Assembly: GCA_022768655.1 (NCBI GenBank)
Contig: JALEQD010000010.1
Location: forward strand, 1 to 41,632
DNA length: 41,632 nucleotides
DNA from: Anaeroplasma sp.
GTDB lineage: Bacteria > Bacillota_I > Bacilli_A > Acholeplasmatales > Anaeroplasmataceae
Direction of reading: 5' to 3'
This document shows positions 1,837 to 41,632 of the stretch, piece by piece. Below the pieces are notes generated by a model. That model was not told where the DNA came from, did no database searches, and saw only the letters and a program-made list of their open reading frames with translations. Position 1 is the stretch's first letter, and every line of letters begins with the position of its first letter. A program made the translations under genes and the position numbers.

Positions 1837-2031
1837 TTCTTATAAATATAGATTAGTAGGTATTTTTTTCTTTTTGTCTACTAAACTGGTACCACTTCAC
1901 TGTGTTCAAGGTATTTTATTTTTATTATTAATTTGAAACTTTTTTTACATAACTTAAATTATAATTTTCACAATTAATATTTTGTGGATATATTATTAAC
2001 TTTATATTTTTAAAATATTTAGAAATAACAA

Positions 2032-2067
2032 AAAGACATCTCAAAATATAACTTTGAAATGTCTTTT
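2032..2067. terminator. Bidirectional terminator-like hairpin
   Basis: AAAGACATcTCAAA...TTTGAaATGTCTTT, downstream of the minus-strand gene 2143..4899. A second hairpin follows at about 2077-2104 (ATTTCTTATGTTT/AACATAAGAAAT). Confidence 0.6.
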
Positions 2068-2142
2068 ATATTGATTTCTTATGTTTAGCAAAAAACATAA
2101 GAAATGTGTTATAAATTTTGGATTTTAATTGAATTTTCTCAA

Positions 2143-4899
2143 CTAGCTGTTAGCAATAATAGAGTAAGTTATTTCAATTGAAGAAATTCTTAATTGCTGA
2201 TTTTCTTTATTTTGTAATGTAAATGATGAAGAATTAATTGCATAAACTCCTGTTTTTGCTTCTGTTGCTGTAGATTCGATTTTTGTATCTCCTACTTTTA
2301 CTGTAGCAGCAGTAGTTTTAGTAGTGTTGTTAAATACAATTTTTATAGAATTAATAACAACAGTAAATCCTGATATAGTATTTACTGAGAAAGTTAATTT
2401 ACTACCATTACCAGTACCTGCAGCAACTTTATCGCTTTCACGATATAATGATAAATAAGAAGGATTATCTCCTGCTGTATTGATCATAGGAATTGAAGAT
2501 AGACTATAATTTTCTAATGTAATTGTAAATAATCTCTCATCAAATCCTAATGTTGTAGCGTTATTTTCAGTTTTACTTAATTTAATATTATTCTCTGATG
2601 TATTTGAAGTATAATCACCAGTAACTTTTAAATTTTCTCCGGCTGTAATTCCTGTAGACTCAGGTAATTGTGCTTCTACAGTAACATCAGCAGTCTTTGT
2701 TTGATCTCCAATTGTAACTGAAATTGTAACTGTTGCAGAAACTGCTGCTTCAGCAGGAGTAATAGTTAGTTTACCTGTTGTAGCATTCCAAACTACTGCT
2801 TCACCACCATTAGCTACTGTTACAGTTAATGTTGAATCTTTATAAATTAAATTTAAAGTTTTTTCAGCATTTTTTTCAAATTTAGTAGTTCCAATTGTAG
2901 TCTTAATAGCGTCAACTTCTAATTGAGCTCTTACATCAGCAGCTCTTAAGTCTTCTACATAATCTAATGTATAAACAACAATTTGATTTGTTACAACACC
3001 ACTAGTTGTATTCTTAAAAATACCATAAGTACCTGTAATCTTATAAGACTCATTTGCTGATAAATATGCAGGATTAATACCCTTCATAAATACATTTATT
3101 TCTTTTGCTGCTTCACCTTCACCTACTACAAATACTTGATTTGAACCAGATTTTTCTTTGTATTTACCAGTGAATGATACAAACTTACCTTGAGTTTCAG
3201 CAGTAATAGTTAAACCATTAGCTGCTAAATCAGTAGTAACATCTGTAGGAGTAGCAGTACCTTCTTCTGTTGCTAAAATTGTAACATTTACTAATTCTAA
3301 AACATCATTATAAGTATCTTTCTTAGCAGAAACAGTAATCAAATCACCAATTTCCACATCTAATACTGTAGAATTAAAGATATAATATCCATTTCCATCA
3401 GCGTCTACAATATAAACTTCTGTCTTATTTTTAGATGATACATATACTTGTACAACTGTACCCTTTACATATAATACAGTATCATCTTCAGCATTTACAT
3501 AAGTTTCATGTGAATCAACTACAACATTCGCAAGTAATTTAATTGTAACTGTTTCAGTTGTTTTAACTTCTTCTCCAACCTTAACAGTTAATGTTAAAGT
3601 AACATCTGTATCTTCAGTAACTACTGCAGTAGTTAAGGTAGGAACAACTCTAGTTACAGCTGGAACATATCCTTCTTCTCCTTCAGTTCCTTGAGCTGGA
3701 GTAACAACGATAGTCTTTGTTCCAACTACAGCCTTATCACTATTTGAAGTCCATGTAGCAGTCATTCCAGTATAATTTGTATTTGCTTCAATATCAGCTT
3801 CATTAGCTAATACGATTTCCTTAATACCATATACTTGAGCAGGAACATTTGCTGCTGTTTTTACTTCATTTGCAAATCCATTAGAATAATCCCTAGTAAA
3901 AGATGCAGTTAAAGGAATAATTTGAGCATTATTATACCAACCAACAACACCTTCAATTGTTACAACATCACCAGCGATTAAGCCAGTTAATAATTTATAC
4001 TCATCTGATGCTTCAGGAGTTAAATATTTAGAAACCTTAACAGTAATTTGTTTAGATTTATCTGCTTGATCACCTACAACAATTGTAGTTCCATTTACAG
4101 AAACAACTGAAATATTTGTTAATTTAACTGGATGACATTGAATAGCCTTTGTAGGTAAATTTCCAGCTAAAACTGATTCAGTAATATCTGTTGCTGCTTT
4201 AACTGAATTTGCAGTATCATCAGTCATATAAGTACATGGATTTAATTCTCTTAAACCATTATATGTAGCAATTGTACCAGTAACATAAATTGTATTACCA
4301 ATCTTTAAATCTTTATCATATGCTTCTTGAGATGCACAAGCAAGACGATATGCTTCAAAGCCACCATCTTCACAAGCAATATATACAGATGTATTCTTAT
4401 AGCTTGCAGAATATGATTCTCTTGCAGTGATTACACCCTTTAATGTAATTGTATCACCTTTTTTAGCCTTATCATAATCCGCACAAGTAGATGCTACAAA
4501 CTTAGGAACAGTAAATCCAAATTCCTTTGATGCTTTATCTTCAGCATTATCTGGATTAGTAACTGTTGCTGTTAATTTAACATTTGCATCTTCCTTTAAT
4601 GAAGGATTATAAGCAACTGTTGCTGTAATTAATTTTGTTTCTTGATCTGCTTCACCGAAAGAAACAACAGGAGTATTTGATGTCCAAGCCACATTATATG
4701 TAACTCCATTATCTCCCTTAACAATACTTGATACTTCGAAATCTGCAGTAACTGCAGTTTGCTTATCTTGCATAAGCATAATTTTCTTTGTAGCTGCCTC
4801 AGCACCAGAATTTACTGGTTCTTTATCACATGAAGCTAATGTGAATAAAGAAAGAACTAAAGCTACCACAAATAAAGCAATTTTTTTTAATTGTTTCAT
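2143..4899 (-). CDS. Large secreted lipoprotein with repeated OB-fold-like and Ig-like segments
   Basis: Lipobox MKQLKKIALFVVALVLSLFTLASC. Several segments of the type DTITLKGVITARES..YIAC and VLYVKGTVVQVYVSSKNKTEVYIVDADG..GYYI suggest OB folds; Ig-like stretches such as TVTISVTIGDQTKTADVTVEA. Confidence 0.6.
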   Translation of the reverse strand: MKQLKKIALFVVALVLSLFTLASCDKEPVNSGAEAATKKIMLMQDKQTAVTADFEVSSIVKGDNGVTYNVAWTSNTPVVSFGEADQETKLITATVAYNPSLKEDANVKLTATVTNPDNAEDKASKEFGFTVPKFVASTCADYDKAKKGDTITLKGVITARESYSASYKNTSVYIACEDGGFEAYRLACASQEAYDKDLKIGNTIYVTGTIATYNGLRELNPCTYMTDDTANSVKAATDITESVLAGNLPTKAIQCHPVKLTNISVVSVNGTTIVVGDQADKSKQITVKVSKYLTPEASDEYKLLTGLIAGDVVTIEGVVGWYNNAQIIPLTASFTRDYSNGFANEVKTAANVPAQVYGIKEIVLANEADIEANTNYTGMTATWTSNSDKAVVGTKTIVVTPAQGTEGEEGYVPAVTRVVPTLTTAVVTEDTDVTLTLTVKVGEEVKTTETVTIKLLANVVVDSHETYVNAEDDTVLYVKGTVVQVYVSSKNKTEVYIVDADGNGYYIFNSTVLDVEIGDLITVSAKKDTYNDVLELVNVTILATEEGTATPTDVTTDLAANGLTITAETQGKFVSFTGKYKEKSGSNQVFVVGEGEAAKEINVFMKGINPAYLSANESYKITGTYGIFKNTTSGVVTNQIVVYTLDYVEDLRAADVRAQLEVDAIKTTIGTTKFEKNAEKTLNLIYKDSTLTVTVANGGEAVVWNATTGKLTITPAEAAVSATVTISVTIGDQTKTADVTVEAQLPESTGITAGENLKVTGDYTSNTSENNIKLSKTENNATTLGFDERLFTITLENYSLSSIPMINTAGDNPSYLSLYRESDKVAAGTGNGSKLTFSVNTISGFTVVINSIKIVFNNTTKTTAATVKVGDTKIESTATEAKTGVYAINSSSFTLQNKENQQLRISSIEITYSIIANS

Positions 4900-4937
4900 C
4901 TAAGCTTTTCTCCTTTTTATTTCATTTTATTTTTATA

Positions 4938-6248
4938 TCAACGAATAACTACGTCATCCATTGATATTAATGAAATCTGATAATTGTCATTATACTTTTC
5001 TATAATACCTGTTACATCAATTGTTTTGCCTTCAAAATTTGATTGTAAAACAATTGAATTAGAATCAACTTGATATTTTCCTGTTCTATCATATAAAACA
5101 GATGTACGAACCTTTACTATTTGTCCATCAACCTTACCTGTTATAGTAATAGCACCTTTACTTGATGATCCTGAGGTATTTGTAGTATAACAGCTAGTTA
5201 CAACAATATTTTTTAATGTAACTAAAGTAAATTCTTTTGCATAACTAGTAGTATCATTTAGTGATGCAGCAGTAATTTCTTGTGCCTTAACATCAACTTT
5301 TTCTAATAACTTAATATTATCTTTATTTGATGTCAAAAGCTTATCAACGATATCAGTTAACTGATAAACATTTCCTGTCTCATAATAAGTTATAGTACCA
5401 GAAACCTTAATTCTATTTCCTATTTCTTCCATATAACCTGTTGAAATTCCAGTAGGTCTATAGAACACTTGAATTCCATACCAAGTTTCTGTTTCTAAAT
5501 CTTCATCAATTAAATAGTATTCATTACCATCAATTCTAGCAATTGTTGCTGTAAAGATTACCTTCTTTAAATAATACTTACTATTTTGACCATTTTCATG
5601 CAAATCTTTTTGTAAAGCCATTAAAGTAGTTTCCATTGCTTCTGTATAGCAATAATCAGGGTCTGTTTCTCCCCAAACCTTAATACCTTTTTTACGAGCT
5701 TGATCTGCAGCAGCAATAAGCTCAGAAACATAATTTTTAACACCTGCATTTTTAGATACAGAATAGCCTTCTTGAACTAATTCTAAATTCAATAATTTAT
5801 ATTCTTCCTTATCTGGTAACTTATACCAAACCCAAGCTAACCATCTATCATAGTTATCTTGTTCTCCTGGTCCACCATCTGATGTAATAACTAATGAGGC
5901 AGCTGCCTTTACTAATCCCTTAGTAAAGTTTGAGGCAGCTACACCCCAAGCCTCTACTGCAGCAGTAGATTCTGGAGTGTCTACACCTAAAAATCTTAAC
6001 TTTAAAATTGAATCATCCTGACCAGTAACATGAATTGTATCTCCATCTACTGCTTGATATAAAGTGACCTCCTCTATACCATCCTTAGCAAACGTTTTTC
6101 CGGTAAAATCCTCGGTTAGTTTTACTTGAGAAACATAATCAACATCTGTTGCTGGCTCGCTTTCTTTTTCACCACAGCTTGTTAATGTGAAAAAAACGAA
6201 TAATCCTAGGACTAAAAGTAAACTAAATACTTTGCCTAATTTTTTCAT
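4938..6248 (-). CDS. Secreted lipoprotein, staphylococcal-type thermonuclease (SNase) with C-terminal OB-like domains
   Basis: Lipobox LTSC. AVDGDTIHV, LRFLGVDTPES and YDRWLAWVWY match the SNase catalytic motifs (R35/E43/R87 equivalents). Confidence 0.88.
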   Translation of the reverse strand: MKKLGKVFSLLLVLGLFVFFTLTSCGEKESEPATDVDYVSQVKLTEDFTGKTFAKDGIEEVTLYQAVDGDTIHVTGQDDSILKLRFLGVDTPESTAAVEAWGVAASNFTKGLVKAAASLVITSDGGPGEQDNYDRWLAWVWYKLPDKEEYKLLNLELVQEGYSVSKNAGVKNYVSELIAAADQARKKGIKVWGETDPDYCYTEAMETTLMALQKDLHENGQNSKYYLKKVIFTATIARIDGNEYYLIDEDLETETWYGIQVFYRPTGISTGYMEEIGNRIKVSGTITYYETGNVYQLTDIVDKLLTSNKDNIKLLEKVDVKAQEITAASLNDTTSYAKEFTLVTLKNIVVTSCYTTNTSGSSSKGAITITGKVDGQIVKVRTSVLYDRTGKYQVDSNSIVLQSNFEGKTIDVTGIIEKYNDNYQISLISMDDVVIR

Positions 6249-6250
6249 TA

Positions 6251-7636
6251 TTATTGACCTGCTTGATATTTACAATTCTTGATAGCTTTTGTGAAGTAGC
6301 TTTGAACTAGTTCATCAGTTACTGCAGCCTTATCTTGCATTAAGCTTGATACTAAGCTACCAACTTCATCACGAGCATAAGAAGAACCAATGAATACTTC
6401 AGAAGTAAAGTATGCATTATTTTGAGCAATTGCTTGTTTTGTTGCTGTTGCAGCAATTCCATTTTTAGTTCCATCAGCCTTGCTTAAGAAATTATTAACA
6501 TAAACTTCATTATTTTGAGCAGTTTTTGTAACTGGTAAATAACCAGAAGTCATAGCAAATCTAACTTGAACTGAATCTGTTAATAAATATTGAGTAAATA
6601 ACCAAGTAGCTAATACCTCTTGAGCATTGTCCTTCTTAAATAATACTAATGATGGACCTTGAGAAATAGCCTTTGCTTCTTTTCCTGCAGCATAAGGAAC
6701 ATTAGATACGCCTGTTTCAAATGCACCAGAACTATTAGCTTGATATGTTGCACCTGCAGTTGAACCAATACACATATAAGCACGAGAATCTAAAGATGTA
6801 TCTGTCATTAATGTATTAGTATATGTACCATAAATACCTTGAGTAGTAAAATAGCCCTTATTGTAGTTTTCTTTGAAAGTCTTCATTAAGCCTCTCATTC
6901 CTTCATTATCAAAATCAAATGAATTTTGAGAAGTATATGCATAACCATAAGTTTCTGATAATGTAATAAATAAATTTGAATCTGAATCATATCCTAATGG
7001 ACAAGATTTTGGATCAATTTCTTTAATTTTAGCACAAGTTTCCCACATTTCTTCCCAAGTTTTAGGAACTTTTAAATTATGCTCAGTAAAGAATGTCTTA
7101 TTGTAGAATAAAGCTTCTGTTGATTTTAAAAATGGCATTGTATACATTAAACCATCACCATATACTGAACCTTCATTATAGAAAGCCTCAACAAAATCTT
7201 CTTTAGTAGGTCCATCAAATTTTAATTCAGAACCACCAAGACCATACTTTCCATTTGCAATTACATCATCTAATGATACAGCAATTGTTGCCTCATTATA
7301 TAATGCAACATGGTCTGGATAGCAATATGCCATACTTGGATATCCTCCAGTACCCATATTTGTTACGATTTGATCACGTACATCATCATAACCACCAATT
7401 TGTTGATGTTCAACTGTAATGTTTGGATATAATGCTGTAAATTCTTCAATTGCTTCATTTAAAACCTTTTGTAAATTGTCACCTTGAGTGTGCCAAAATG
7501 TAATTGTTACTGGTGTTTGAGTATCAAACTCCTCTGGACATACAAAATTTGCTGCAACCTTTGTGCCACAAGAAGCTAAAGCTAAAGCACTAGCACCTAA
7601 AGCTGCTAAACCAAAAATTCTTTTTTGAAATTTCAT
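6251..7636 (-). CDS. ABC transporter extracellular solute-binding protein (CUT1 type)
   Basis: Lipobox ALASC; VTITFWHTQGDNLQKVLNEAIEEFTALYPNITVEHQQIGGYDD. Likely start is ATG at 7636 after AAGGAG; the track ORF start at 7654 is a TTG. Confidence 0.9.
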   Translation of the reverse strand: MKFQKRIFGLAALGASALALASCGTKVAANFVCPEEFDTQTPVTITFWHTQGDNLQKVLNEAIEEFTALYPNITVEHQQIGGYDDVRDQIVTNMGTGGYPSMAYCYPDHVALYNEATIAVSLDDVIANGKYGLGGSELKFDGPTKEDFVEAFYNEGSVYGDGLMYTMPFLKSTEALFYNKTFFTEHNLKVPKTWEEMWETCAKIKEIDPKSCPLGYDSDSNLFITLSETYGYAYTSQNSFDFDNEGMRGLMKTFKENYNKGYFTTQGIYGTYTNTLMTDTSLDSRAYMCIGSTAGATYQANSSGAFETGVSNVPYAAGKEAKAISQGPSLVLFKKDNAQEVLATWLFTQYLLTDSVQVRFAMTSGYLPVTKTAQNNEVYVNNFLSKADGTKNGIAATATKQAIAQNNAYFTSEVFIGSSYARDEVGSLVSSLMQDKAAVTDELVQSYFTKAIKNCKYQAGQ

Positions 7637-7657
7637 TTTAATTTTCTCCTTCAATTT

Positions 7658-8572
7658 TTAACCTTTTGTTCCGCTTCTAGAAACGCCTCTCATAATATAT
7701 TTCCTAAAGAAAATAAATATTAAGAAAAGTGGTATAGAAACAATTGTTACTGCTGCCATTTGTAATGGATAATCAACACGGCCTGATTCTGTTGTAAAGG
7801 CTGTACGAAGTCCATTTGTAATAAGCTTATAACTGTCGCTATTAGCAACAAGTCTAGGCCATACATATGAATTCCACGCTCCCATCATCTTAAGTATTGT
7901 AATTGAGATGATAGATGGCATTGAAAGTGGAACCATCACTTTAAACAAATATTTTAAATCACTTGTACCATCAACCTTTGCTGCATAATATAAGGAATCC
8001 GGAATTTGTTTGAAGTTTTGTCTTAATAAATAGATATAAAACACACTAACTAAAAATGGAATAATTAATACTGTATAAGAATTTGTCCACTCTAAGTTTG
8101 AAACTGTAACATAGTTTGTAATTGTAAACATTTCACCAGGAATCATCATTGTTGCAAGTAGAATTGTAAACAATAATTCTCTTCCCTTAAAATTAATTCT
8201 CGCAAAAGCAAATGCTGCTAATATAGTAATTAATAACGATAATATTGTAGATGTAACACCAACAATTACTGTATTAATCATATATCTACCAAAATCAGCT
8301 GCTTGCCAAGCATTCATATAATTTTCCCAATGAACCTCCATTGGCCAAAATGTAGGATTTGCCAAATAGTATTCATCCATAGATTTTAATGATGAATTAA
8401 TCATCCAATAGAATGGGAATATCATAATAAATGCTACAAAAATTAAGAACAAATATATAACAATTAATCTAATTACTTTAAAAATCTTTTGTCTTTTTGC
8501 TGCTTTTTTAAGTTCTTCATCACTTTTAATCAGTGATTGTAATTCAAGTTCTCTTTTAGATAATTCTTGCAT
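7658..8572 (-). CDS. Carbohydrate-type ABC transporter permease (MalG/UgpE-like)
   Basis: Multiple TM segments; EAA loop YYAAKVDGTSDLKYLFKVMVPLSMPSI. Confidence 0.9.
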   Translation of the reverse strand: MQELSKRELELQSLIKSDEELKKAAKRQKIFKVIRLIVIYLFLIFVAFIMIFPFYWMINSSLKSMDEYYLANPTFWPMEVHWENYMNAWQAADFGRYMINTVIVGVTSTILSLLITILAAFAFARINFKGRELLFTILLATMMIPGEMFTITNYVTVSNLEWTNSYTVLIIPFLVSVFYIYLLRQNFKQIPDSLYYAAKVDGTSDLKYLFKVMVPLSMPSIISITILKMMGAWNSYVWPRLVANSDSYKLITNGLRTAFTTESGRVDYPLQMAAVTIVSIPLFLIFIFFRKYIMRGVSRSGTKG

Positions 8573-8584
8573 TTAAACCACCTC

Positions 8585-9505
8585 CTAGTAATGAACCTTT
8601 TTCTTAGATACTAAGAATTGAATTAAGGTAATGAATAGAATGATTACGAATAAGAATAGTGCACCAGCAGCAGCTCTACCAGTCCATACCTGACTTAATG
8701 AATCATAAATAAATCCTACCATTGTTGTCATACCATAATCCTTTAGATTTTCGCCAAAAATACCAACAGCACTAGTATATTCTTTAAATGCTCCAATGAA
8801 ACCTGTAACTACAACATATAATAACATTGGAGAAATTAATGGAACTGTAATTTTTGTAAATACTCTAAATCTAGATGTTCCATCAACCCTTGCAGCATCA
8901 TAATATTGCTTATTAACAGATTGTAATGCACCCAATAAAATCATAATTTTAAATGGCAATGCATTCCAAATTATATATGTACATAGTACAAACATTTTAT
9001 TAAATTTAGGAGCATTAGTTGATACCCAAGTTAAATCAGTAACATCAACTCCAAAAAGCTGTAACAAATGATTAAACAAACCAATATTATTTACAACTGA
9101 TCCCGTTTGATAAACACTAAATATCATTGAAAATACCATACCAATGGCAATTCCATTTGTAACATAAGGTAAGAAATAAATTGTTTGTAAAAATGATCTA
9201 AGAGGTTTAATTGAATTTAAACCTACCGCAATCAACAATGCAATTATTGTTGAAAGAGGAACTGTAACAAACGCAATAATACACGTATTAACAAGTCCTT
9301 CAATCAAATAATCATTTTTAAATACCTGAACATAATTGTTAATACCAAATTTAAATGAAACACCTGATGCAGCTAAAGACTGCTTGTATCCATTTAAAAA
9401 TGATATATAAATAGTATTAACTAGTGGATAAAAAGTAAACACAGCTAAAATTATTAGTGCCGGTGCTAAATATATCCATGCTTTCCAACCATTTTTTTGT
9501 TCCAT
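8585..9505 (-). CDS. Carbohydrate-type ABC transporter permease (MalF/UgpA-like)
   Basis: Multiple TM segments; EAA loop YYDAARVDGTSRFRVFTKITVPLISPML. Confidence 0.9.
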   Translation of the reverse strand: MEQKNGWKAWIYLAPALIILAVFTFYPLVNTIYISFLNGYKQSLAASGVSFKFGINNYVQVFKNDYLIEGLVNTCIIAFVTVPLSTIIALLIAVGLNSIKPLRSFLQTIYFLPYVTNGIAIGMVFSMIFSVYQTGSVVNNIGLFNHLLQLFGVDVTDLTWVSTNAPKFNKMFVLCTYIIWNALPFKIMILLGALQSVNKQYYDAARVDGTSRFRVFTKITVPLISPMLLYVVVTGFIGAFKEYTSAVGIFGENLKDYGMTTMVGFIYDSLSQVWTGRAAAGALFLFVIILFITLIQFLVSKKKVHY

Positions 9506-9516
9506 AGAAATCCTCC

Positions 9517-10629
9517 TTATTCTGTAACAGGCTCATTAGCCTCTAAAGAAGGGCTTTCTTTTGGTTCATATAATCTAACTTCTGTTTCTTTATTGAACAA
9601 GAAAATCTTATTTGGTTTAATTGAAAGCTTAACCTCACCAACACCTACATTTACGTCTGCATCAACTATGATTCTTAGTGATGGCTTTAAGCATTCAGCA
9701 TGGTTAGCAATAATAGAAATATCTCTTCCCATTATCTCTAATTGTTGAACATTAACTGTAAATTCGCCATTTGGATCAACCTCACAGCCTTCGGGTCTAA
9801 TACCAACATATACTTCTTGATTTGGAAGTTTTGTATCCATAATTGCTTCTTCACCAATATAAACTTTACCATTTTCAATTTTACCATTAAATGTATTAAT
9901 AGGTGGTGTACCTAAAAATTGTGCAACGAATAAGTTTGCAGGATCATCATAAACCTTTTGAGGTGCATCCATTTGCTGAACTACACCTAATTTCATTACA
10001 ATGATTATATCTGAAATACTCATAGCTTCTTCTTGATCATGTGTAACGAATACAGTAGTTACTCCTGTTTCTCTTTGAATTCTTTTTATTTCTTCTCTTG
10101 TTTGTAATCTTAATCTAGCATCTAGATTTGATAGAGGCTCATCTAACAACAAAACATTAGGAGATTTAACTAACGCACGTGCAATCGCAACTCTTTGTTG
10201 CTGTCCACCAGAAAGCTCATTTGGCTTTCTATCCATTAAATTCTCTAATTGAACAAGCTTTGCTGCTTCTGTAGCTCTTTCTAAAGCAATTTTCTTTGGA
10301 ATTCTTTGATTTAACAAAGGAAACATTATATTTTGACCTACTGTCATGTGTGGATATAATGCATAATTTTGGAATACTAAACCAATACCTCTTTTTTCAG
10401 GTGCTAGCTTTGTAACATTGTTTTCTCCAAAATAAATTTCTCCTGAAGAAGGAGTTTGTAATCCTGAAATCATAAACAATGTTGTTGATTTACCACAGCC
10501 TGATGGTCCAAGCAATCCAACTAGCTTTCCATCTGGAATTTCAACATCCATATTATCGACTGCTCTTACTTCAGTCTTTGTTTTCTTGTTCATAAAAACT
10601 TTAGTTAAATTTTTAAGCACAATTTTCAT
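9517..10629 (-). CDS. ABC transporter ATP-binding protein (MsmX/UgpC-like) with TOBE-like C-terminus
   Basis: Walker A GPSGCGKST, signature LSGGQQQR, Walker B VLLLDEPLSNLD. Likely start is ATG at 10629; the track start at 10641 is a GTG. Confidence 0.93.
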   Translation of the reverse strand: MKIVLKNLTKVFMNKKTKTEVRAVDNMDVEIPDGKLVGLLGPSGCGKSTTLFMISGLQTPSSGEIYFGENNVTKLAPEKRGIGLVFQNYALYPHMTVGQNIMFPLLNQRIPKKIALERATEAAKLVQLENLMDRKPNELSGGQQQRVAIARALVKSPNVLLLDEPLSNLDARLRLQTREEIKRIQRETGVTTVFVTHDQEEAMSISDIIIVMKLGVVQQMDAPQKVYDDPANLFVAQFLGTPPINTFNGKIENGKVYIGEEAIMDTKLPNQEVYVGIRPEGCEVDPNGEFTVNVQQLEIMGRDISIIANHAECLKPSLRIIVDADVNVGVGEVKLSIKPNKIFLFNKETEVRLYEPKESPSLEANEPVTE

Positions 10630-10677
10630 AAAAAATTTCACCCCGATTTATTTTTTCGACAATCATAACTATACTTT

Positions 10678-25007: not shown

Positions 25008-27698
25008 TTATTTATAAGATTTTAATAAATATCCTTCTTCATATGTTGTATTTATTCCAACCTTATATTTTGAATTTAAAAGATTAGATTCTAAATTATC
25101 TAAGCTAATTATTTTTTGAACAAATGGTGCTTTATTATCATTTGTTCTAAAGAAGAACTCATCATAATCTAATGAACCATTTTTTGAAAATTGTTCATTA
25201 TCATCAAATGATGAACCTGTATATACTGAATCAGTTGGTTCTACCTGATAGCTACAATTAATTAGTTTTGCACCACCAGCACCAATTCCATCATTATTCT
25301 TTAAAAGACTATAAATTCCTTTAAAAATACAGTTTTCTGAATATATTGAACCATCACAGCCTACAACAAAGCCTTGAGATACTAATGCACATTTCCATGA
25401 GCTATTTATATTTGATACTTTACTTGCCACGTTTGCTGTTTTTAATTCAGTACGGTAAGTATAATATTCTGAATTATCAAATATTGAATTTGTTACATAT
25501 GCATTTCCACCACGAACCTTTGGTAGACGATCCTCTATATTTTTAAAATAACAATTATCAATTGATAATGTTAAATTATAATTATAAGTTAAATCATCAT
25601 TACCATTACCAGTATCACCACATAGGAATGCTTTCTTTTGAGGAATCGCAATGCCATAAATAATTTGTTCTTTTGTTATTCCTGCATCTCTTAATGCTTT
25701 GTAATATAAATAATTATTATTACCTGCTTGATAATCAGCTTCTATTTCTGCCATCATTTTCATTAAATAGCCATTAGGATCATCACTACCAGCTTTAAAA
25801 TTACACCAAGAAATATGAACATTTGATGTATTATCACTTCCATATGGAGCATATTTATATGTACCTAATGTATCCTGAGTTGTATTAGCTATATCAATTT
25901 GACCATCATATGATTTACCAAATGTACAATGATCAATCCAAATATCATCACTATAGCCTATTTTGAAATATGCCCAACCAAAGGCATCCATATCTCCAAC
26001 CTTTGCGGTTGTTGATAGTTTTGAATCCTCCCATTGCCACATTTCATCCATTTCAATATTTCTAAAGACAACATTTTTACAATAATTAACTTTAAAGCCA
26101 CCATGAGTAATTTTAGAGCCATTTTTTGAATATATTAATAAATCGTTTATTCTTTGAACTAATATTTGACTCATTCCATATTCTTTAAACATAGAAGACA
26201 TTGTGTATGCTGTTTCACTACTTGCCTTTGTGAAATTTTGAACCATATTTGTAGCTTTTGCAGCTTCAGATAATTTATTCCAACCTAATTCTAAATCATT
26301 CATTATTTCAATAACATGAACAGAACCAGGTGAAATTAGCTGTTGTGAATATTCTACTTTAATGTAAGGTGATTCCTCATAATATGTCATTGAAACTGTA
26401 TAATTTGGATCTGTAAATGGTGTATCTACAGGAATTTTTGTAAATGTTCCATCACTATTTTTTAAGAATAATCCTTTATTTAAAGCATTTTGCCAATTTC
26501 CTTCATTTTTTCTTGTGTTATTTCTAACAACATAACCAACCTTATAATATTCCATTTCATTTGTATAATTAGGATTTGAAAATTTCGTATCAGCAGCAAT
26601 TTTTGTAAATGTGCCATCACTATTTTTAACAAATAAACCATTACTTAATAATGTTTTCCAATTTCCTTCATATTTGTGAGCATTTTCAACCTCAACATAA
26701 CCATTATTTTTTATAGATGTTAAATTATTTTCATAGCTTAATTGTGCATTTTTTAAGGCAGTTAAGAATTCATCTGCTGTTCTTACTTGAACATATGCAG
26801 AAGTATTTTCATATATTGAAAAATCAATATCATTTCCTGATAAATATCCCATTTGGGTAGGAATATATGTGATAATGTTTGAAGCAACACTTTTTTCATA
26901 ACGCTTATCATCTGATGCAGCAAAAACTATAATATTATATTCTTCTTTGCTTTCCTTAGGTAATATATATTTAGTATCTGTAGTTACTATTTCTTCATTA
27001 TTAACAGAAACAATATATTTTGATGCATTTTCAATAGCTTCCCATTCAATCATTCCACCTGTATTTTTTACAATTGGGGATTCTAATTGTGTTTCATATT
27101 TAAATGTTAATTTTACAATATCTGAATATTCGCTATCCTTATAATTTTTTAAAGTAGTTATAGCCTTAACCTTAATTTCATAAGTTCCTGAATGATCTGT
27201 TGGAATTTGATATTTTCTTTGTGTTGTAGATAAAGGTTCTTTATCTTCACCATTAATATTTATAATATATCCAGTTGCTAGATCAACAATCTTCCAGCTA
27301 ACCTCTAAATTATTATCACTTACTGTTAAAACTGGTGTATTTAATGATTTTCTTCTATCAATTGTAACCTTTAATTCATCAGAATAATCACTAGTTTTAT
27401 TTTCAATATCAACAGCTTGAACCTTAACAATATATTCTCCATCTTCATCAAAATTAGATAATTCATAGTATGTATTTGTTATATTAGCTCTATCAACACC
27501 ATTAATATTTATTATATATTTTGTAGCATTTTCAACTTTTTCCCATTCAATTTTATCGCTTGATAGGGTTAATACTGGTTTTTTTAATTGTTCTTGTATA
27601 GGATCTGGTGTTGGTGTAGGATTTTCTTCAAGTCCACAAGAGCTTATACCAAATATAAATATAAAAAATAACAATAATAATATAATTTTTTTCTTCAT
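25008..27698 (-). CDS. Lipoprotein pectate lyase (PL1-like) with N-terminal Fn3-like modules
   Basis: Lipobox ISSCG; DDIWIDHCTFGKSYDGQIDI, NVHISWCNFK and EDRLPKVRGGNAYVTNSIFDN match PL1. Three Fn3-like modules (e.g. PVLTLSSDKIEWEKVENATKYIININGVD). Confidence 0.85.
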   Translation of the reverse strand: MKKKIILLLLFFIFIFGISSCGLEENPTPTPDPIQEQLKKPVLTLSSDKIEWEKVENATKYIININGVDRANITNTYYELSNFDEDGEYIVKVQAVDIENKTSDYSDELKVTIDRRKSLNTPVLTVSDNNLEVSWKIVDLATGYIININGEDKEPLSTTQRKYQIPTDHSGTYEIKVKAITTLKNYKDSEYSDIVKLTFKYETQLESPIVKNTGGMIEWEAIENASKYIVSVNNEEIVTTDTKYILPKESKEEYNIIVFAASDDKRYEKSVASNIITYIPTQMGYLSGNDIDFSIYENTSAYVQVRTADEFLTALKNAQLSYENNLTSIKNNGYVEVENAHKYEGNWKTLLSNGLFVKNSDGTFTKIAADTKFSNPNYTNEMEYYKVGYVVRNNTRKNEGNWQNALNKGLFLKNSDGTFTKIPVDTPFTDPNYTVSMTYYEESPYIKVEYSQQLISPGSVHVIEIMNDLELGWNKLSEAAKATNMVQNFTKASSETAYTMSSMFKEYGMSQILVQRINDLLIYSKNGSKITHGGFKVNYCKNVVFRNIEMDEMWQWEDSKLSTTAKVGDMDAFGWAYFKIGYSDDIWIDHCTFGKSYDGQIDIANTTQDTLGTYKYAPYGSDNTSNVHISWCNFKAGSDDPNGYLMKMMAEIEADYQAGNNNYLYYKALRDAGITKEQIIYGIAIPQKKAFLCGDTGNGNDDLTYNYNLTLSIDNCYFKNIEDRLPKVRGGNAYVTNSIFDNSEYYTYRTELKTANVASKVSNINSSWKCALVSQGFVVGCDGSIYSENCIFKGIYSLLKNNDGIGAGGAKLINCSYQVEPTDSVYTGSSFDDNEQFSKNGSLDYDEFFFRTNDNKAPFVQKIISLDNLESNLLNSKYKVGINTTYEEGYLLKSYK

Positions 27699-35222: not shown

Positions 35223-38200
35223 ATGGTGATACATATGAAAATTATAAAAAAATTATTACTTATACTTCCAATTTTTAGCTTAGCATTTATAACATCATGT
35301 GGTGAAAATGATAATCCAAACAATAATCAAATAGAAAAAGAAGAATATTCTATTGATTTTGTTGTTAATGGAATTACTATTAATAATATTAAAGTAAAAG
35401 AAGGTAATGCAATTACATTACCAAATGAGCCTAATATAACAGGTTATACTTTTGATGGTTGGTTTTTAGATCAGGAATTTAAAAATAAATTACCTGATAA
35501 TTATATTCCTAATGGTAATATCACTATTTATGGTAAAACAACACCAATTGAAAAAGAAATTACAATTACGTTTGTTGCTGATACAACATCAACAGTAAAA
35601 ATTAAAGCAAATAGTAAGGTAGTAGAGCCAGAAGCTCCAACAAAGGAAGGATATACCTTCGATGGCTGGTATTTGAATAATTCATCAAAAAAATTTAATT
35701 TTGATACTATTATTACTGATAATATGACTTTGTATGCTAAATTTACAATAAATGAATATACTGTTTCATTTAACACATTTAGTGAAAGCACAATAGAAAG
35801 TAAAACAGTAAAATACAATACAACAATTAAAGCACCTACTGCGCCAACAAAGGAAGGCTATATCTTTGATGGCTGGTATAGTGATGAAAATTTTGTGAAT
35901 AAATTTAATTTTAATACACCAATTACAGCAAATACTACCTTGTATGCTAAATGGAATGCTTTACAATTTAATGTTACATTTAATACAAATGGTGGTAATA
36001 CAATTAATCCATTAGTTGTAGATTATAATACTGTATTAAATTCATTAGAGGTACCAACAAAGAAAGGCTATACCTTTGAAGGTTGGTATACTAATTCTAG
36101 CTTAACATCAAAATATAATAATACACCAATTACAGTAAATATCACATTATATGCAAAATGGAAAATAAATGAATATACTGTTTCATTTAATGTAAATGGT
36201 AATATCACAACACAAAAGGTAAATTACAATCAAAAAGTAACTAAACCTACTGATCCAAGCATAACAAATGGTAATTTTGCTGGTTGGTATACAGATAATA
36301 CTTATAATACATTATTTAATTTTGATACACTAATTACAGCAAATATCACATTATATGCAAAAATAAGTACAAACCCTATCGCAACATTTTATGTTGATAA
36401 TGCAATTTATGATTATGTTGAGGCTGATAGTAACAATAAAATATTAAAGCCAACTGATCCAACAAAAACAGGTTATACATTTATTAATTGGTATAAAGAA
36501 TCTACATTAACAAATGTCTTTAATTTTAATGAAGCAATATCTAATAATATTACTTTATATGCAAAATTTGGAATTAACACATATACTGTAACATTTAATA
36601 ATGATGGTAATATTACAACTCAAGAAATAGATTATAATCAAAAAGCAGTAAAACCAAATAATCCTTCTAAGGAGCATTATGATTTTATTGGCTGGTATTT
36701 AGATAATTCAACAAATGAATTTAATTTTAATACACCAATTATAGAAAATATTACTTTATATGCTAAATATACACTAAGTAAATATACTGTAACATTTAAT
36801 GTAAATGGTGGTTCTTTAGTTCAAAATCAGCAAATTGAATATAATAAGCTAGCAAATGAGGTTACAACAACAAAACAGCATTATACATTTGAAGGCTGGT
36901 ATACTGATTCTAGCCTAACAAATAAATTTATTTTTACTACTCCAATTACTGAAAATATTACATTATATGCAAAATGGGTAGAAAATAATAAATATACTAT
37001 TACATTTATTACTGATGATGTAACATATTTAACTACAACAGTTTATGAAAATGAGCTTTTAACAAAGCCAGCTAATCCTACAAAGGATGATTTATCATTT
37101 GAAGGCTGGTATACTGATTCTAGCTTAACAACTAAGTATGATTTTACAGAACCAGTTACAGAAGGCTTTAGCTTATATGCAAAATTTATTGAAACTCCAT
37201 TTACTGTTACAAATAATGGTGGTTATAATGAAGGAGCATATGTAGAATTTGAACTATTACCAGCATCAAATGTATCAAATTATAAAGTTTCATATAAAAA
37301 ATCAACTGATTCTAGCTACACACAAATTGATTCTAATTTAATTAGATTAATCGATACAACAACAGTAAGAGCTGATATCTTAGGCTTAAGTAAGGGTACA
37401 TATTCAATTAAAATTGAAACTACAGGAATAAGTACAAAAATTGAAGCCTATGTTAATAACATTAGTGTATCTGAAAACGATCGTTCAGGCTATGCTCATT
37501 TTAATAATTTAACTGGTGTTGGTGGTTATAACAATGATGGTACAGTAAAATCAAATGCACAAATAGTATATGTTAGTGAAGAAAATAAAAATACAGTTCA
37601 ATGTGTTATTGGAAGTAAAACATATACTGGTATTTCTGCGATATTACAAGCACAAAAAAATAATTCTAATCCATTAATCATTAGAATTATTGGTACTGTA
37701 TCTGCCGCAACATGGAATAAAATTGATTATAAAACAACATCAACAACACAAATCACACCTGATAAGGTAATAGGAAGTAATGGTAAAGCATTATCACTTA
37801 AAAATTACACAGAAGAAGAAATAATAAGTGGTGGATTTAATACATTAAATACCACAAAATATTCAAAATTAAATGGTTTATCAAATCGAATTAAATATGA
37901 TTCTTCAAAAAAAGAATTTGATTCATATTACAATATGCTTGATGTATCATCAGCTAAAAACGTAACAATTGAGGGTGTTGGTACAGATGCGACATTATTT
38001 CAATGGGGAATAACTTGGAAATCATGTCAATCAATTGAAGTAAGAAATCTAACATTTAATGATTATACAGAGGATGCTTGTAGCTTTGAGGGTGGATCAA
38101 GTGAAAACACTGAATCATTATCTAATTTCACATCAAAATATTATTGGGTACATAATAATACATTCAATTTAGGTGTAAATTATTGGGATGTATGTAATGA

Positions 38201-41200
38201 ACAGGATAAACATGAGGGTGATGGTTGTACAGATTTTAAATATGTAGCAAATGTTACTATATCTTATAATCATTATTACAAAACTCATAAGACAGGTCTA
38301 GTTGGTGGTGGTGATACACAGCACAGTGCAAACTTTACATTTCATCATAACTTCTACGACCAATGTCAATCAAGATTACCATTTGCAAGACAAGCAAATA
38401 TGCATATGTATAATAACTATTATTATGGTTCAACAGGTACAAATATGCAAATATATGCTGGAGCATATGCATTTATAGAAAATTGTTATTTTGAAAAAGT
38501 AAAAAACCCTATGGTTATGAAAACAGGTGGTGAAAGTACTTCATTAGGCTTTGTAAACCGTATAGGTGCAGCTAAGCTATATAATAATGTATTTAATGGC
38601 TGTAGTGGTACAAATAATGGTACAGTTGTTTCATCAAGAACAAAAGCTGTAACAAATGAAAATTGTTATAATCAAACATTTGATACAGATTCAAGTGCTT
38701 TCTATTATGATAGTACAAATCAAAAATCAAAGGTTACTTTACTTACAACACCAGAACAAGCAAAAATAGATTGTCAAAAATATGCAGGTACATTAACAAA
38801 AAATATGACTACTCCATCTACTGATATAACTGGTGGAAAAATTGAAACAAAAACATTTACAATAACATTTAATACAAATACTACTGATGTAGAAAAAGAA
38901 CCTCTAACTGTAGTTGAAGGAAATAGTATTACATTACCTAGCTTAGAAAGAACAGGCTATACATTTGGTGGTTGGTATTTAGATTCAAGCCTTACAACAA
39001 AAGCAAATGATGAATTTATTCCAACAGCAAACACTACCTTATATGCAAAATGGACTGAAAAATCAAATGTATCAGGAATAATTGCAGATGATATAGATGT
39101 TGGAACATCATATACTTCAGGAAGTAAAATTTATGATGGTGATTCATTCAGTGTAACCACAACAGGTATTAACCCAAAAATTTCTAAAAATTATTCAAAC
39201 GCAGTAGCTAATGATTCTTCTAATCTTACATTTACAACCGCATTTTTACCTGGTGGAACAACAAATGGTGGTTCAGTAGGCTATACAATTACAGCTAAAA
39301 AAACAACCATAGTTACTATTTACTTTACAATAACAGATTCAAAATTTACAACATCTGATCAATCAAAATCTGGTGAATTAAGAATTAATTCTAGTATAGT
39401 TACAACAATATCTGGAAGTAAATCAAACAAAATTGCTTATGCCTATAAGCTTAATATTACACAAGGACAAACATATTTTGTTGATTCATCTTCAAATCGT
39501 TTAGCTATATTTGCAATAATTGAAAATAATACAACTGAAGCAAATCCTACTAATGAAATATTAAACAGTATTTCATTAGGTTTTAATCAAACTGAATTAT
39601 TATCTTCAGGCTCTACAGCCGGAAACAGCGTTTATTATAATCATACTATAAAAAGAATATATAATTTAGGAGAAAGCTTTGATAGTTCATATCTAACAGT
39701 TACTAAAAATTCAACAATTGAAGGAACAACCGCTGATGTAATATTATTGTCTTCTGAATACACAATTGATTCTTCTTCATTTAATAAAGATGTAGAGGGA
39801 ACATATACAATCACAGTTTCTGTAACAATCGGTGATATTACAAAGCAAGATAGCTTTAAGGTATCTGTTGTTAATACATCTGTTTCTATAATTAATAATA
39901 TTGCCCAAGTTAAAGTAGATAAGACATATACAGGTATTATTGGAGCAATAGTTGATAATTATAATATGTTTACTTATATTGAAGAAGCATTAGAATATTT
40001 AGAATTAAATACATCATCAACACAAGAAAAATATCTATTAATAGCTGATGGTCTTTACAATGAAAAATTAGAAATAAATATACCTAATTTAACAATTTGT
40101 GGAACTAGCAAAGATAATACTATTATTGAATGGAATTCATTATATGGTATTAAAGATGAATCAGGATTTGAGCAGGTTACAGATTCAACACAAACTGTCG
40201 CAATAAGATCTAAAGCTACAAATGTCACAATTAAAAATCTAACAATTTCTAATTATTGGAATAGTGTAGATGTATTTAATCAAGCATTTGGTACAAATTA
40301 TAACGAGCATAGAGCATTAGCACTACTAGTTCAAACTGATAAATTCATTATGGATAATTGTAAATTATTAGGTTATCAGGATACATTAGAATTAATGACA
40401 GGTAGACAAATAATAAAAAATACCTATATTTCTGGTACAACTGATTTTATTTTTGGTACTAATAATACAACATATTTTTATAGATGTGAAATACATTCTA
40501 TTTCAACAGGTAAAACAGATGGTGGCTTTATAACAGCCTTTAAGGGCTCTAATAAAGGAGAATCTGATTACATTGAATATGGTGCAATCTTCAATGAATG
40601 TAATTTTACAGCTGATAGTGATGTAATATCAGCAGGTAATACCGCAATTGCACGTCCTTGGAATATTTATTCAAGTGTAATGATAATGAATTCAACACTT
40701 GCAGGCCATATTTCAACAAAAGGATATACAGATGGCACAACAAAAAATCAAAGATATGTAAAAATGAGCTCTGTTGCCCCTAATCTTAATACAATAAAAT
40801 TCTATGAATATAATAATACAGGTGCTGGTGCAATATCTACATCAGTTACTGGATGTACAGTAATAACTGATGCCACTTTAGCAAGTAATTATTCAGATTA
40901 TTCAAAAATATTTGGTGTTACAAATGGCGCACTAAAATTTTATTCTCAGCCATGGAATGGTGATTCAAATGAAGTAATAGCTGATGAATCAATATATTAT
41001 TTCTTTAATGGCGAGGAATCTTCTACAGGTACATCATATACATATACTCAAGCAATTGAAAATTCAAGTACAATAGTAGAGTGGAATGGTTTATCAATAA
41101 ATACTTCATCAAATGGTAAGCTTGCTTATAATACAGCTGGTTATACACAATTTAATACAAACACAACAATCACATTAACTGTTAAGAGTGGATATTCATT

Positions 41201-41357
41201 TACAATTTTAAGCTATCCAGGCCAACATAATTACACAGTTAATAATGTAGCAGTAACAGCTGATGAATATACAATTAATTGTACTGAGGAAACAACTATA
41301 GTTGTTAAAGCAACTAGTACATCATATATTTATTCAATCATATTAAGAAAAATATAA
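35223..41357 (+). CDS. 2044-aa lipoprotein: InlB/Listeria-Bacteroides repeats, PL1 pectate lyase domain, Ig-like linker, pectin methylesterase (CE8) domain, C-terminal beta-sandwich-like module
   Basis: Lipobox FITSCG; ten GYxFxGWYxD...TLYAKW units; PL1 WITWKSCQSIEVRNLTF..WVHNNTF..RLPFARQANMHMYNNYY; PME GYQDTLELMTGRQIIKNTYISGTTDFIFG and ARPW. Confidence 0.88.
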   Translation: MVIHMKIIKKLLLILPIFSLAFITSCGENDNPNNNQIEKEEYSIDFVVNGITINNIKVKEGNAITLPNEPNITGYTFDGWFLDQEFKNKLPDNYIPNGNITIYGKTTPIEKEITITFVADTTSTVKIKANSKVVEPEAPTKEGYTFDGWYLNNSSKKFNFDTIITDNMTLYAKFTINEYTVSFNTFSESTIESKTVKYNTTIKAPTAPTKEGYIFDGWYSDENFVNKFNFNTPITANTTLYAKWNALQFNVTFNTNGGNTINPLVVDYNTVLNSLEVPTKKGYTFEGWYTNSSLTSKYNNTPITVNITLYAKWKINEYTVSFNVNGNITTQKVNYNQKVTKPTDPSITNGNFAGWYTDNTYNTLFNFDTLITANITLYAKISTNPIATFYVDNAIYDYVEADSNNKILKPTDPTKTGYTFINWYKESTLTNVFNFNEAISNNITLYAKFGINTYTVTFNNDGNITTQEIDYNQKAVKPNNPSKEHYDFIGWYLDNSTNEFNFNTPIIENITLYAKYTLSKYTVTFNVNGGSLVQNQQIEYNKLANEVTTTKQHYTFEGWYTDSSLTNKFIFTTPITENITLYAKWVENNKYTITFITDDVTYLTTTVYENELLTKPANPTKDDLSFEGWYTDSSLTTKYDFTEPVTEGFSLYAKFIETPFTVTNNGGYNEGAYVEFELLPASNVSNYKVSYKKSTDSSYTQIDSNLIRLIDTTTVRADILGLSKGTYSIKIETTGISTKIEAYVNNISVSENDRSGYAHFNNLTGVGGYNNDGTVKSNAQIVYVSEENKNTVQCVIGSKTYTGISAILQAQKNNSNPLIIRIIGTVSAATWNKIDYKTTSTTQITPDKVIGSNGKALSLKNYTEEEIISGGFNTLNTTKYSKLNGLSNRIKYDSSKKEFDSYYNMLDVSSAKNVTIEGVGTDATLFQWGITWKSCQSIEVRNLTFNDYTEDACSFEGGSSENTESLSNFTSKYYWVHNNTFNLGVNYWDVCNEQDKHEGDGCTDFKYVANVTISYNHYYKTHKTGLVGGGDTQHSANFTFHHNFYDQCQSRLPFARQANMHMYNNYYYGSTGTNMQIYAGAYAFIENCYFEKVKNPMVMKTGGESTSLGFVNRIGAAKLYNNVFNGCSGTNNGTVVSSRTKAVTNENCYNQTFDTDSSAFYYDSTNQKSKVTLLTTPEQAKIDCQKYAGTLTKNMTTPSTDITGGKIETKTFTITFNTNTTDVEKEPLTVVEGNSITLPSLERTGYTFGGWYLDSSLTTKANDEFIPTANTTLYAKWTEKSNVSGIIADDIDVGTSYTSGSKIYDGDSFSVTTTGINPKISKNYSNAVANDSSNLTFTTAFLPGGTTNGGSVGYTITAKKTTIVTIYFTITDSKFTTSDQSKSGELRINSSIVTTISGSKSNKIAYAYKLNITQGQTYFVDSSSNRLAIFAIIENNTTEANPTNEILNSISLGFNQTELLSSGSTAGNSVYYNHTIKRIYNLGESFDSSYLTVTKNSTIEGTTADVILLSSEYTIDSSSFNKDVEGTYTITVSVTIGDITKQDSFKVSVVNTSVSIINNIAQVKVDKTYTGIIGAIVDNYNMFTYIEEALEYLELNTSSTQEKYLLIADGLYNEKLEINIPNLTICGTSKDNTIIEWNSLYGIKDESGFEQVTDSTQTVAIRSKATNVTIKNLTISNYWNSVDVFNQAFGTNYNEHRALALLVQTDKFIMDNCKLLGYQDTLELMTGRQIIKNTYISGTTDFIFGTNNTTYFYRCEIHSISTGKTDGGFITAFKGSNKGESDYIEYGAIFNECNFTADSDVISAGNTAIARPWNIYSSVMIMNSTLAGHISTKGYTDGTTKNQRYVKMSSVAPNLNTIKFYEYNNTGAGAISTSVTGCTVITDATLASNYSDYSKIFGVTNGALKFYSQPWNGDSNEVIADESIYYFFNGEESSTGTSYTYTQAIENSSTIVEWNGLSINTSSNGKLAYNTAGYTQFNTNTTITLTVKSGYSFTILSYPGQHNYTVNNVAVTADEYTINCTEETTIVVKATSTSYIYSIILRKI

Positions 41358-41363
41358 AAGTAT

Positions 41364-41405
41364 AAAATGGATATATTTCAAAATTATTGAAATATATCCA
41401 TTTTT
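41364..41405 (+). terminator. Rho-independent terminator
   Basis: AAAATGGATATATTTCAAaattaTTGAAATATATCCATTTTT. Confidence 0.85.
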
Positions 41406-41539: not shown

Positions 41540-41632
41540 ATGAAAAATGAAAATCTAAATGAACCAAATTTTAATTTAACAAATGATGTATTATTTAAGG
41601 ATTACTACAGTAATCCAGACAACCTAAGTGTA
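41540..41632 (+). CDS. 5' fragment of a possible Rpn-family PD-(D/E)XK nuclease/transposase, truncated by the window end
   Basis: MKNENLNEPNFNLTNDVLFKDYYSNPDNLSV after AAGGAGAAAAAG; 'LTNDVLFK' resembles the Rpn N-terminus. Very short. Confidence 0.4.
   Translation, partial: MKNENLNEPNFNLTNDVLFKDYYSNPDNLSV

What the first reader, a model, noticed from the sequence alone, without database searches (positions are those of the whole stretch)
35223..41357. Giant 2044-aa lipoprotein fusing pectate lyase and pectin methylesterase behind nine InlB-type repeats
One surface-anchored protein has a nine-repeat stalk, PL1 with a conserved RLPFAR site, a tenth repeat, a beta-sandwich-like module, an Ig-like segment and CE8 PME with GYQDTL/GTTDFIFG/ARPW. 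PME makes the demethylated substrate that pectate lyase needs, so the fusion is a self-contained pectin-processing enzyme. The tethering stalk in a pectinolytic lipoprotein is unusual.
Basis: partly seen in the sequence, partly recalled or inferred. Interest (0 to 1): 0.65.

Follow-up and report, generated by a model that had tools for sequence, protein, structure and literature searches.

The report
Surface-tethered double pectin-digesting enzyme
A gut-type bacterium carries one very long surface protein that holds two pectin-digesting enzymes on a spacer stalk; both enzymes look functional and the combination is neat, but similar enzyme pairs and similar stalked pectinases are already known or are common in this bacterial lineage.

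Summary
The start is probably 35235 (2040 aa). Every PL1 calcium and catalytic residue checked is present. The PME keeps its catalytic Asp/Asp/Arg and one oxyanion Gln; the other (PemA Gln153) is Arg, as in the Butyrivibrio PME crystal structure PmeC5. Both CBM-like modules have their best solved-structure matches in pectinase-associated carbohydrate-binding domains. The host has a murein wall and genes for galacturonate use.

The claim that a stalked pectinolytic lipoprotein is unusual fails. InlB-repeat pectate-lyase lipoproteins are common in gut Bacilli and Clostridia, and such PMEs are common in this GTDB family. PL1-CE8 fusion in one frame is rarer (4 of 55 genomes in the family, including this one) and arose more than once. 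PL-CE8 fusions are published from rumen bacteria: CE8-PL1-dockerin in Ruminococcus flavefaciens, and the 2089-aa PL9-CE8 protein of Butyrivibrio. Best reading: a membrane-tethered PME-plus-lyase surface enzyme, a new variant of a known kind. Activity and location are inferred.

The parts
35223..41357 (+). whole ORF, stalked PL1-CE8 lipoprotein (2044 codons from first ATG; 2040 from the likelier start at 35235)
35225..35230 (+). Shine-Dalgarno-like GGTGAT ahead of ATG 35235
   Evidence: read from sequence
35235..35300 (+). signal peptide ending in lipobox I-T-S-C (Cys26 counted from ATG 35223)
   Evidence: sequence; lipobox also found in most related PL frames and all long PME frames
35346..37184 (+). 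stalk: nine InlB B-repeat (PF09479) domains, aa 42-654
37185..37502 (+). ~100-aa segment between stalk and lyase, also seen in related PL lipoproteins, no Pfam family
37623..38669 (+). PL1 pectate lyase domain (family HMM aa 801-1149; Pfam core aa 893-1090); D951, D1000, D1004, K1023, R1051, R1056 match PelC D131, E166, D170, K190, R218, R223
38856..39050 (+). tenth InlB B-repeat
39117..39521 (+). beta-sandwich module, CBM-like; best fold matches are carbohydrate-binding domains of a putative pectate lyase
39627..39890 (+). Ig-like domain that precedes the PME in most relatives (Big_3-like in L071)
39942..40895 (+). CE8 pectin methylesterase; Q1719, D1720, D1741, R1811, W1813 conserved; R1697 replaces the oxyanion Gln (PemA Q153)
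40977..41345 (+). C-terminal CBM77-like domain (present in up to six tandem copies in related PMEs)
41364..41404 (+). hairpin followed by a T-run just after the stop codon: probable terminator, so the gene is probably transcribed alone. The scan listed the palindrome on the - strand

Best explanation
A membrane-anchored, surface-displayed bifunctional pectinase. The lipid-anchored N-terminus holds the protein in the membrane, and nine B-repeats span the murein wall and push the enzymes outward. The two CBM-like modules dock the protein on pectin. The CE8 domain removes methyl esters from homogalacturonan, and the PL1 domain on the same chain cleaves the exposed polygalacturonate by Ca-dependent beta-elimination. 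The products stay near the cell for uptake and galacturonate catabolism. Shown: domain content, order, catalytic residues, lipobox, walled host, pathway genes, recurrence. Inferred: activity of both domains, CBM specificity, stalk reach, proximity benefit.
For: Pfam/NCBIfam. PL1 aligns to PelC and PelII with the catalytic and Ca positions kept, essentially invariant in 80 relatives where aligned. PME aligns to PemA and carrot PME and its model matches PME structures (top E 1e-11). C-terminal profile: best solved-structure match is 5fu5, CBM77 (E 0.014); Foldseek also finds 5fu5 (prob 1.00, E 0.017); L071's counterpart scores CBM77 at 24.3 of 25 bits. Middle module: best fold hits 8x8h and 8wc1, carbohydrate-binding domains of a putative pectate lyase. 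Host has MurG-type and transpeptidase genes, four GH28, UxaC and KduI. Separate PL and PME stalk lipoproteins sit side by side in other genomes, including one of a different family of the order. Flg_new is used as a stalk domain (PMC9210967).
Against: No expression, localisation or activity data. The PME carries Arg in place of one oxyanion Gln; precedent exists in PmeC5 (PMC12109409), but that paper shows structure and docking, and I found no activity measurement for it in the passages read. CBM assignments rest on weak sequence scores and models of modest confidence (pLDDT 68 and 53). The nearest repeat of known structure, in Listeria InlB, may have a binding rather than a spacer role (PMC8900821).
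Confidence: 0.8

Rival explanations
1. Chiefly a fibre-binding adhesin: the repeats and CBM-like modules attach the cell to plant pectin, and enzymatic cleavage is secondary or one domain is dead.
For: Long stalk, two CBM-like modules, adhesin-like layout (Flg_new stalks, PMC9210967); oxyanion Gln to Arg swap in the PME.
Against: All PL1 catalytic residues and the PME Asp/Asp/Arg are tightly conserved; the Arg swap is shared by a whole clade (EHRALA motif) and by PmeC5, so it looks selected rather than decayed.
Confidence: 0.1
2. Released enzyme: the lipobox is used for processing but the protein is shed, and the repeats serve a role other than wall spanning, such as self-association.
For: The B repeat of InlB may form cohesive contacts (PMC8900821); no wall-anchor family was matched by Pfam.
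Against: Canonical lipobox, conserved across most relatives.
Confidence: 0.12
3. Assembly artefact joining two separate genes at a repeat.
For: MAG in 228 contigs; neighbouring PL and PME genes exist in relatives.
Against: Long repeat copies are at most 76% alike in DNA, the frame is intact over 6 kb, and the PL-repeat-PME order occurs in independent assemblies L110 and L071/L111, with a PL-PME frame also in L112.
Confidence: 0.03

Closest known systems
CE8-PL1-dockerin proteins of Ruminococcus flavefaciens (PMC4081043)
   Same: PME and PL1 pectate lyase in one chain, rumen
   Different: Opposite domain order; tethered through a dockerin to a cellulosome instead of a lipobox and stalk; no dockerin family matched here
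PmeC5 of Butyrivibrio fibrisolvens, 2089 aa (PMC12109409, PDB 9mm2)
   Same: Giant secreted PME-pectate lyase chain with binding modules; Arg in place of PemA Gln153
   Different: PL9 instead of PL1; YG/adhesin-type modules instead of B-repeats; described as secreted
[quoted passage not shown]
   Same: PME next to Ig-like and InlB-type repeats; pectin-selected beta-sandwich
   Different: No PL1 mentioned; Gram-negative host
Stalked PL1 lipoproteins and stalked PMEs of the same lineage (e.g. L033, L076, L125, L118, L132)
   Same: Same lipobox, repeats, catalytic domains and accessory modules
   Different: Lyase and esterase on separate, sometimes adjacent, genes
CBM77 module of a Ruminococcus flavefaciens pectate lyase (PDB 5fu5, CBM77-RFPL)
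   Same: Pectate lyase carrying a CBM77 module
   Different: Cellulosomal; the module here is divergent and scores below the Pfam cut-off

Membership tests
CE8 pectin methylesterase | Catalytic Asp, Asp, Arg and an oxyanion Gln on a right-handed beta-helix | tested here: met
   D1720, D1741, R1811, Q1719 conserved; fold match to PemA and others. The second oxyanion Gln is Arg1697, a clade-wide swap also in PmeC5
PL1 pectate lyase | Catalytic Arg, substrate Lys/Arg, Ca-ligand acids | tested here: met
   R1051, K1023, R1056, D951, D1000, D1004
Bacterial lipoprotein | Signal peptide ending in [LVI][ASTVI][GAS]C | tested here: met
   ITSC at residues 23-26; lipidation itself not testable
InlB B-repeat (PF09479) | Score above the Pfam cut-off | tested here: met
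   All ten stretches over cut-off
CBM77 | Score above the Pfam CBM77 cut-off; pectin binding | tested here: inconclusive
   Window domain has no CBM77 hit of its own; L071 counterpart 24.3 of 25 bits; family profile and fold both point to 5fu5. Called CBM77-like, not a member
Cellulosomal pectinase | Dockerin module | tested here: not met
   No dockerin family among Pfam matches at E up to 0.01
Functional bifunctional pectinase | Esterase and lyase activity on the same chain | not testable with these tools
   Needs purified protein

The most novel reading that the evidence does not exclude
Uncultured walled Bacilli of this family use a cellulosome-free pectin-degrading surface system built from interchangeable modules on B-repeat stalks, and selection has joined the lyase and the esterase into one tethered chain several times independently.
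Probability: 0.5. Interest if true: 0.45.

Novelty: new variant of a known kind. Interest (0 to 1): 0.3.

Why it matters
Methanol released by pectin demethylation feeds methylotrophic methanogens in the rumen (PMC12109409), and this little-studied family holds PME-family genes in 49 of 55 genomes searched, against 8 of 105 other genomes of the order at a stricter cut-off. The repeated joining of lyase and esterase gives a natural test of whether enzyme proximity on a cell-surface tether pays off.

Tried and rejected
Misassembly across repeats: rejected by DNA repeat scan and independent genomes. PME as dead enzyme because of Gln to Arg: not supported, since the swap is clade-wide and seen in a crystal structure (PMC12109409). 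A single origin of the fusion: the PL domains of the four fusions are rejected as one clade (AU p 3.9e-6), and window plus L071 alone at p 0.01. A structure model of PME plus C-terminus was weak outside the helix core (pLDDT 53). Alignments of the C-terminal domain with L025/L027 were poor and not used. Papers on PDB 8x8h/8wc1 were not found; the Monoglobus genome paper is not held. A direct literature search for InlB repeats with pectate lyase and PME gave nothing relevant. The family search tables were cut short, so fused frames may be undercounted, as may those broken at contig ends.

Full report
Observation. Pfam places ten InlB B-repeats, one PL1 pectate lyase and one CE8 pectinesterase on it, all above curated cut-offs. 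Nine repeats form an N-terminal stalk and the tenth lies between lyase and esterase. A better start is ATG 35235, preceded by GGTGAT, which yields MKIIKKLLLILPIFSLAFITSC with a lipobox. A strong hairpin with a T-run follows the stop codon at 41364-41404. The gene before it reads the other way, so it is probably transcribed alone.

Enzymes. Aligned with PelC (1air), the PL1 domain keeps the Ca ligands, the substrate lysine and both arginines: D951, D1000, D1004, K1023, R1051, R1056 (the D951 match is clearest in the alignment to 2qx3). In 80 distinct related rows these positions are essentially invariant where aligned. The CE8 domain keeps Gln1719, Asp1720, Asp1741, Arg1811 and Trp1813. The second oxyanion-hole Gln (PemA 153, carrot 113; numbering from my knowledge of those structures and from PMC12109409) is Arg1697. 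That swap marks a well-supported PME clade in this family with the motif EHRALA. The same Gln153/Arg206 difference is described for the crystal structure of Butyrivibrio PmeC5, where the authors suggest altered substrate positioning (PMC12109409). I therefore do not read it as inactivation.

Accessory modules. The beta-sandwich at 39117-39521 has no Pfam family, but its model (pLDDT 68) is closest to 8x8h and 8wc1, each described as a carbohydrate-binding domain of a putative pectate lyase. Its profile's best solved-structure match is CBM77 of R. flavefaciens, 5fu5, at E 0.014, and Foldseek finds the same structure from the predicted model. The window copy alone has no CBM77 hit, so I call it CBM77-like. 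The Ig-like domain precedes the PME in most relatives.

Context. The window lies in an unnamed 1.98 Mb MAG. The closest named relatives, some recognised by equal contig length, are rumen and gut MAGs labelled Acholeplasmatales, Erysipelotrichaceae or Bacillales. The genome encodes MurG-type and transpeptidase proteins, so it is walled and a lipid-anchored enzyme would need a spacer. It also encodes four GH28 proteins, UxaC and KduI, consistent with galacturonate use. It has two further PME frames with repeats (C41, C52), two short PMEs without signal peptides (C200, C205), and a repeat-bearing PL lipoprotein (C189).

How unusual. A scan of genome contigs returned 63 PL relatives. Over the loci fetched by then, 35 of 58 distinct PL frames with intact 5' ends carry B-repeats and 45 pass a strict lipobox pattern; the 14 long PME frames that pass it include 11 with repeats, and the only signal-less PME frames are eight short ones plus one frame with a doubtful start. 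Within the GTDB family 49 of 55 genomes have a PME-family match; elsewhere in the order 8 of 105 do at a stricter cut-off. PL1 and CE8 in one frame occur in four family genomes: the window's, G028 (L110), G012 (L111, the same as L071) and G014 (L112, cut at its contig end). In six genomes the two genes are neighbours (G002, G004, G007, G014, G021, G043), and in G056, from another family of the order, a five-repeat PL and an eight-repeat PME lipoprotein are adjacent.

Origin of the fusion. The PL domains of the four fusions do not form one clade (AU p 3.9e-6), nor do window plus L071 (p 0.01). In the PME tree L110's domain (as L081) sits apart, L071 and L112 pair together, and the window's copy groups weakly with a stand-alone PME (the window appears there as L009 and L016). 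The simplest reading is repeated joining, or domain exchange, of genes that often lie side by side.

Prior art. CE8-PL1-dockerin proteins are listed for R. flavefaciens and PL10-CE8 for R. albus (PMC4081043). PmeC5 is a 2089-aa CE8-PL9 protein (PMC12109409). Prevotella proteins combining pectin esterase, Ig-like and divergent InlB repeats are mentioned in a CBM screen that selected a pectin-binding clone (PMC10076258). Flg_new domains are treated as stalks in fibrillar-adhesin work (PMC9210967). I found no paper naming the InlB stalk-PL1-CE8 lipoprotein itself, but the library is partial.

Mechanism. Most likely the lipid-anchored stalk carries the enzymes through the wall, the CBM-like modules hold pectin, CE8 demethylates, and PL1 cuts the resulting polygalacturonate nearby. 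If each repeat is about 3 nm long (my estimate from the InlB beta-grasp domain), nine would reach roughly 25-30 nm. Activity, binding specificity, reach and any benefit from proximity are inferred.

Verdict. A real, well-built bifunctional pectinase and a new variant of a known kind, moderately interesting for rumen pectin and methanol biology. It is not a categorically new system.

Noticed in passing
25008-27698 (-): A second pectate-lyase-type lipoprotein (896 aa, fn3-like domains, ISSC lipobox, EDRLPKVR motif) sits between recF and dnaN in the replication-gene cluster. Relatives in G007 and G017 are not in that setting in the stretches fetched.
   Followed up: partly
PME clade with EHRALA motif (window R1697; L071, L076, L088, L089, L091, L096, L105, L112, L123, L126, L127): Clade-wide Arg in place of an oxyanion-hole Gln of CE8; functional meaning untested.
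   Followed up: partly
L117 (G010), 1952-7999: A 2015-aa PME lipoprotein with six tandem copies of the CBM77-like module.
   Followed up: partly
G024:C6, G003:C67, G013:C25, G008:C61, G014:C45: Giant frames of 2250-3500 aa holding two pectate lyase domains each.
   Followed up: no
6251-10641 (-): Sugar-type ABC transporter (solute-binding protein, two permeases, ATPase) in the same window; substrate unknown.
   Followed up: no
41540-41632 (+): Start of a further gene cut by the window end (LTNDVLFKDYYSNPDNLSV...), possibly an Rpn/PD-(D/E)XK-type protein by eye.
   Followed up: no
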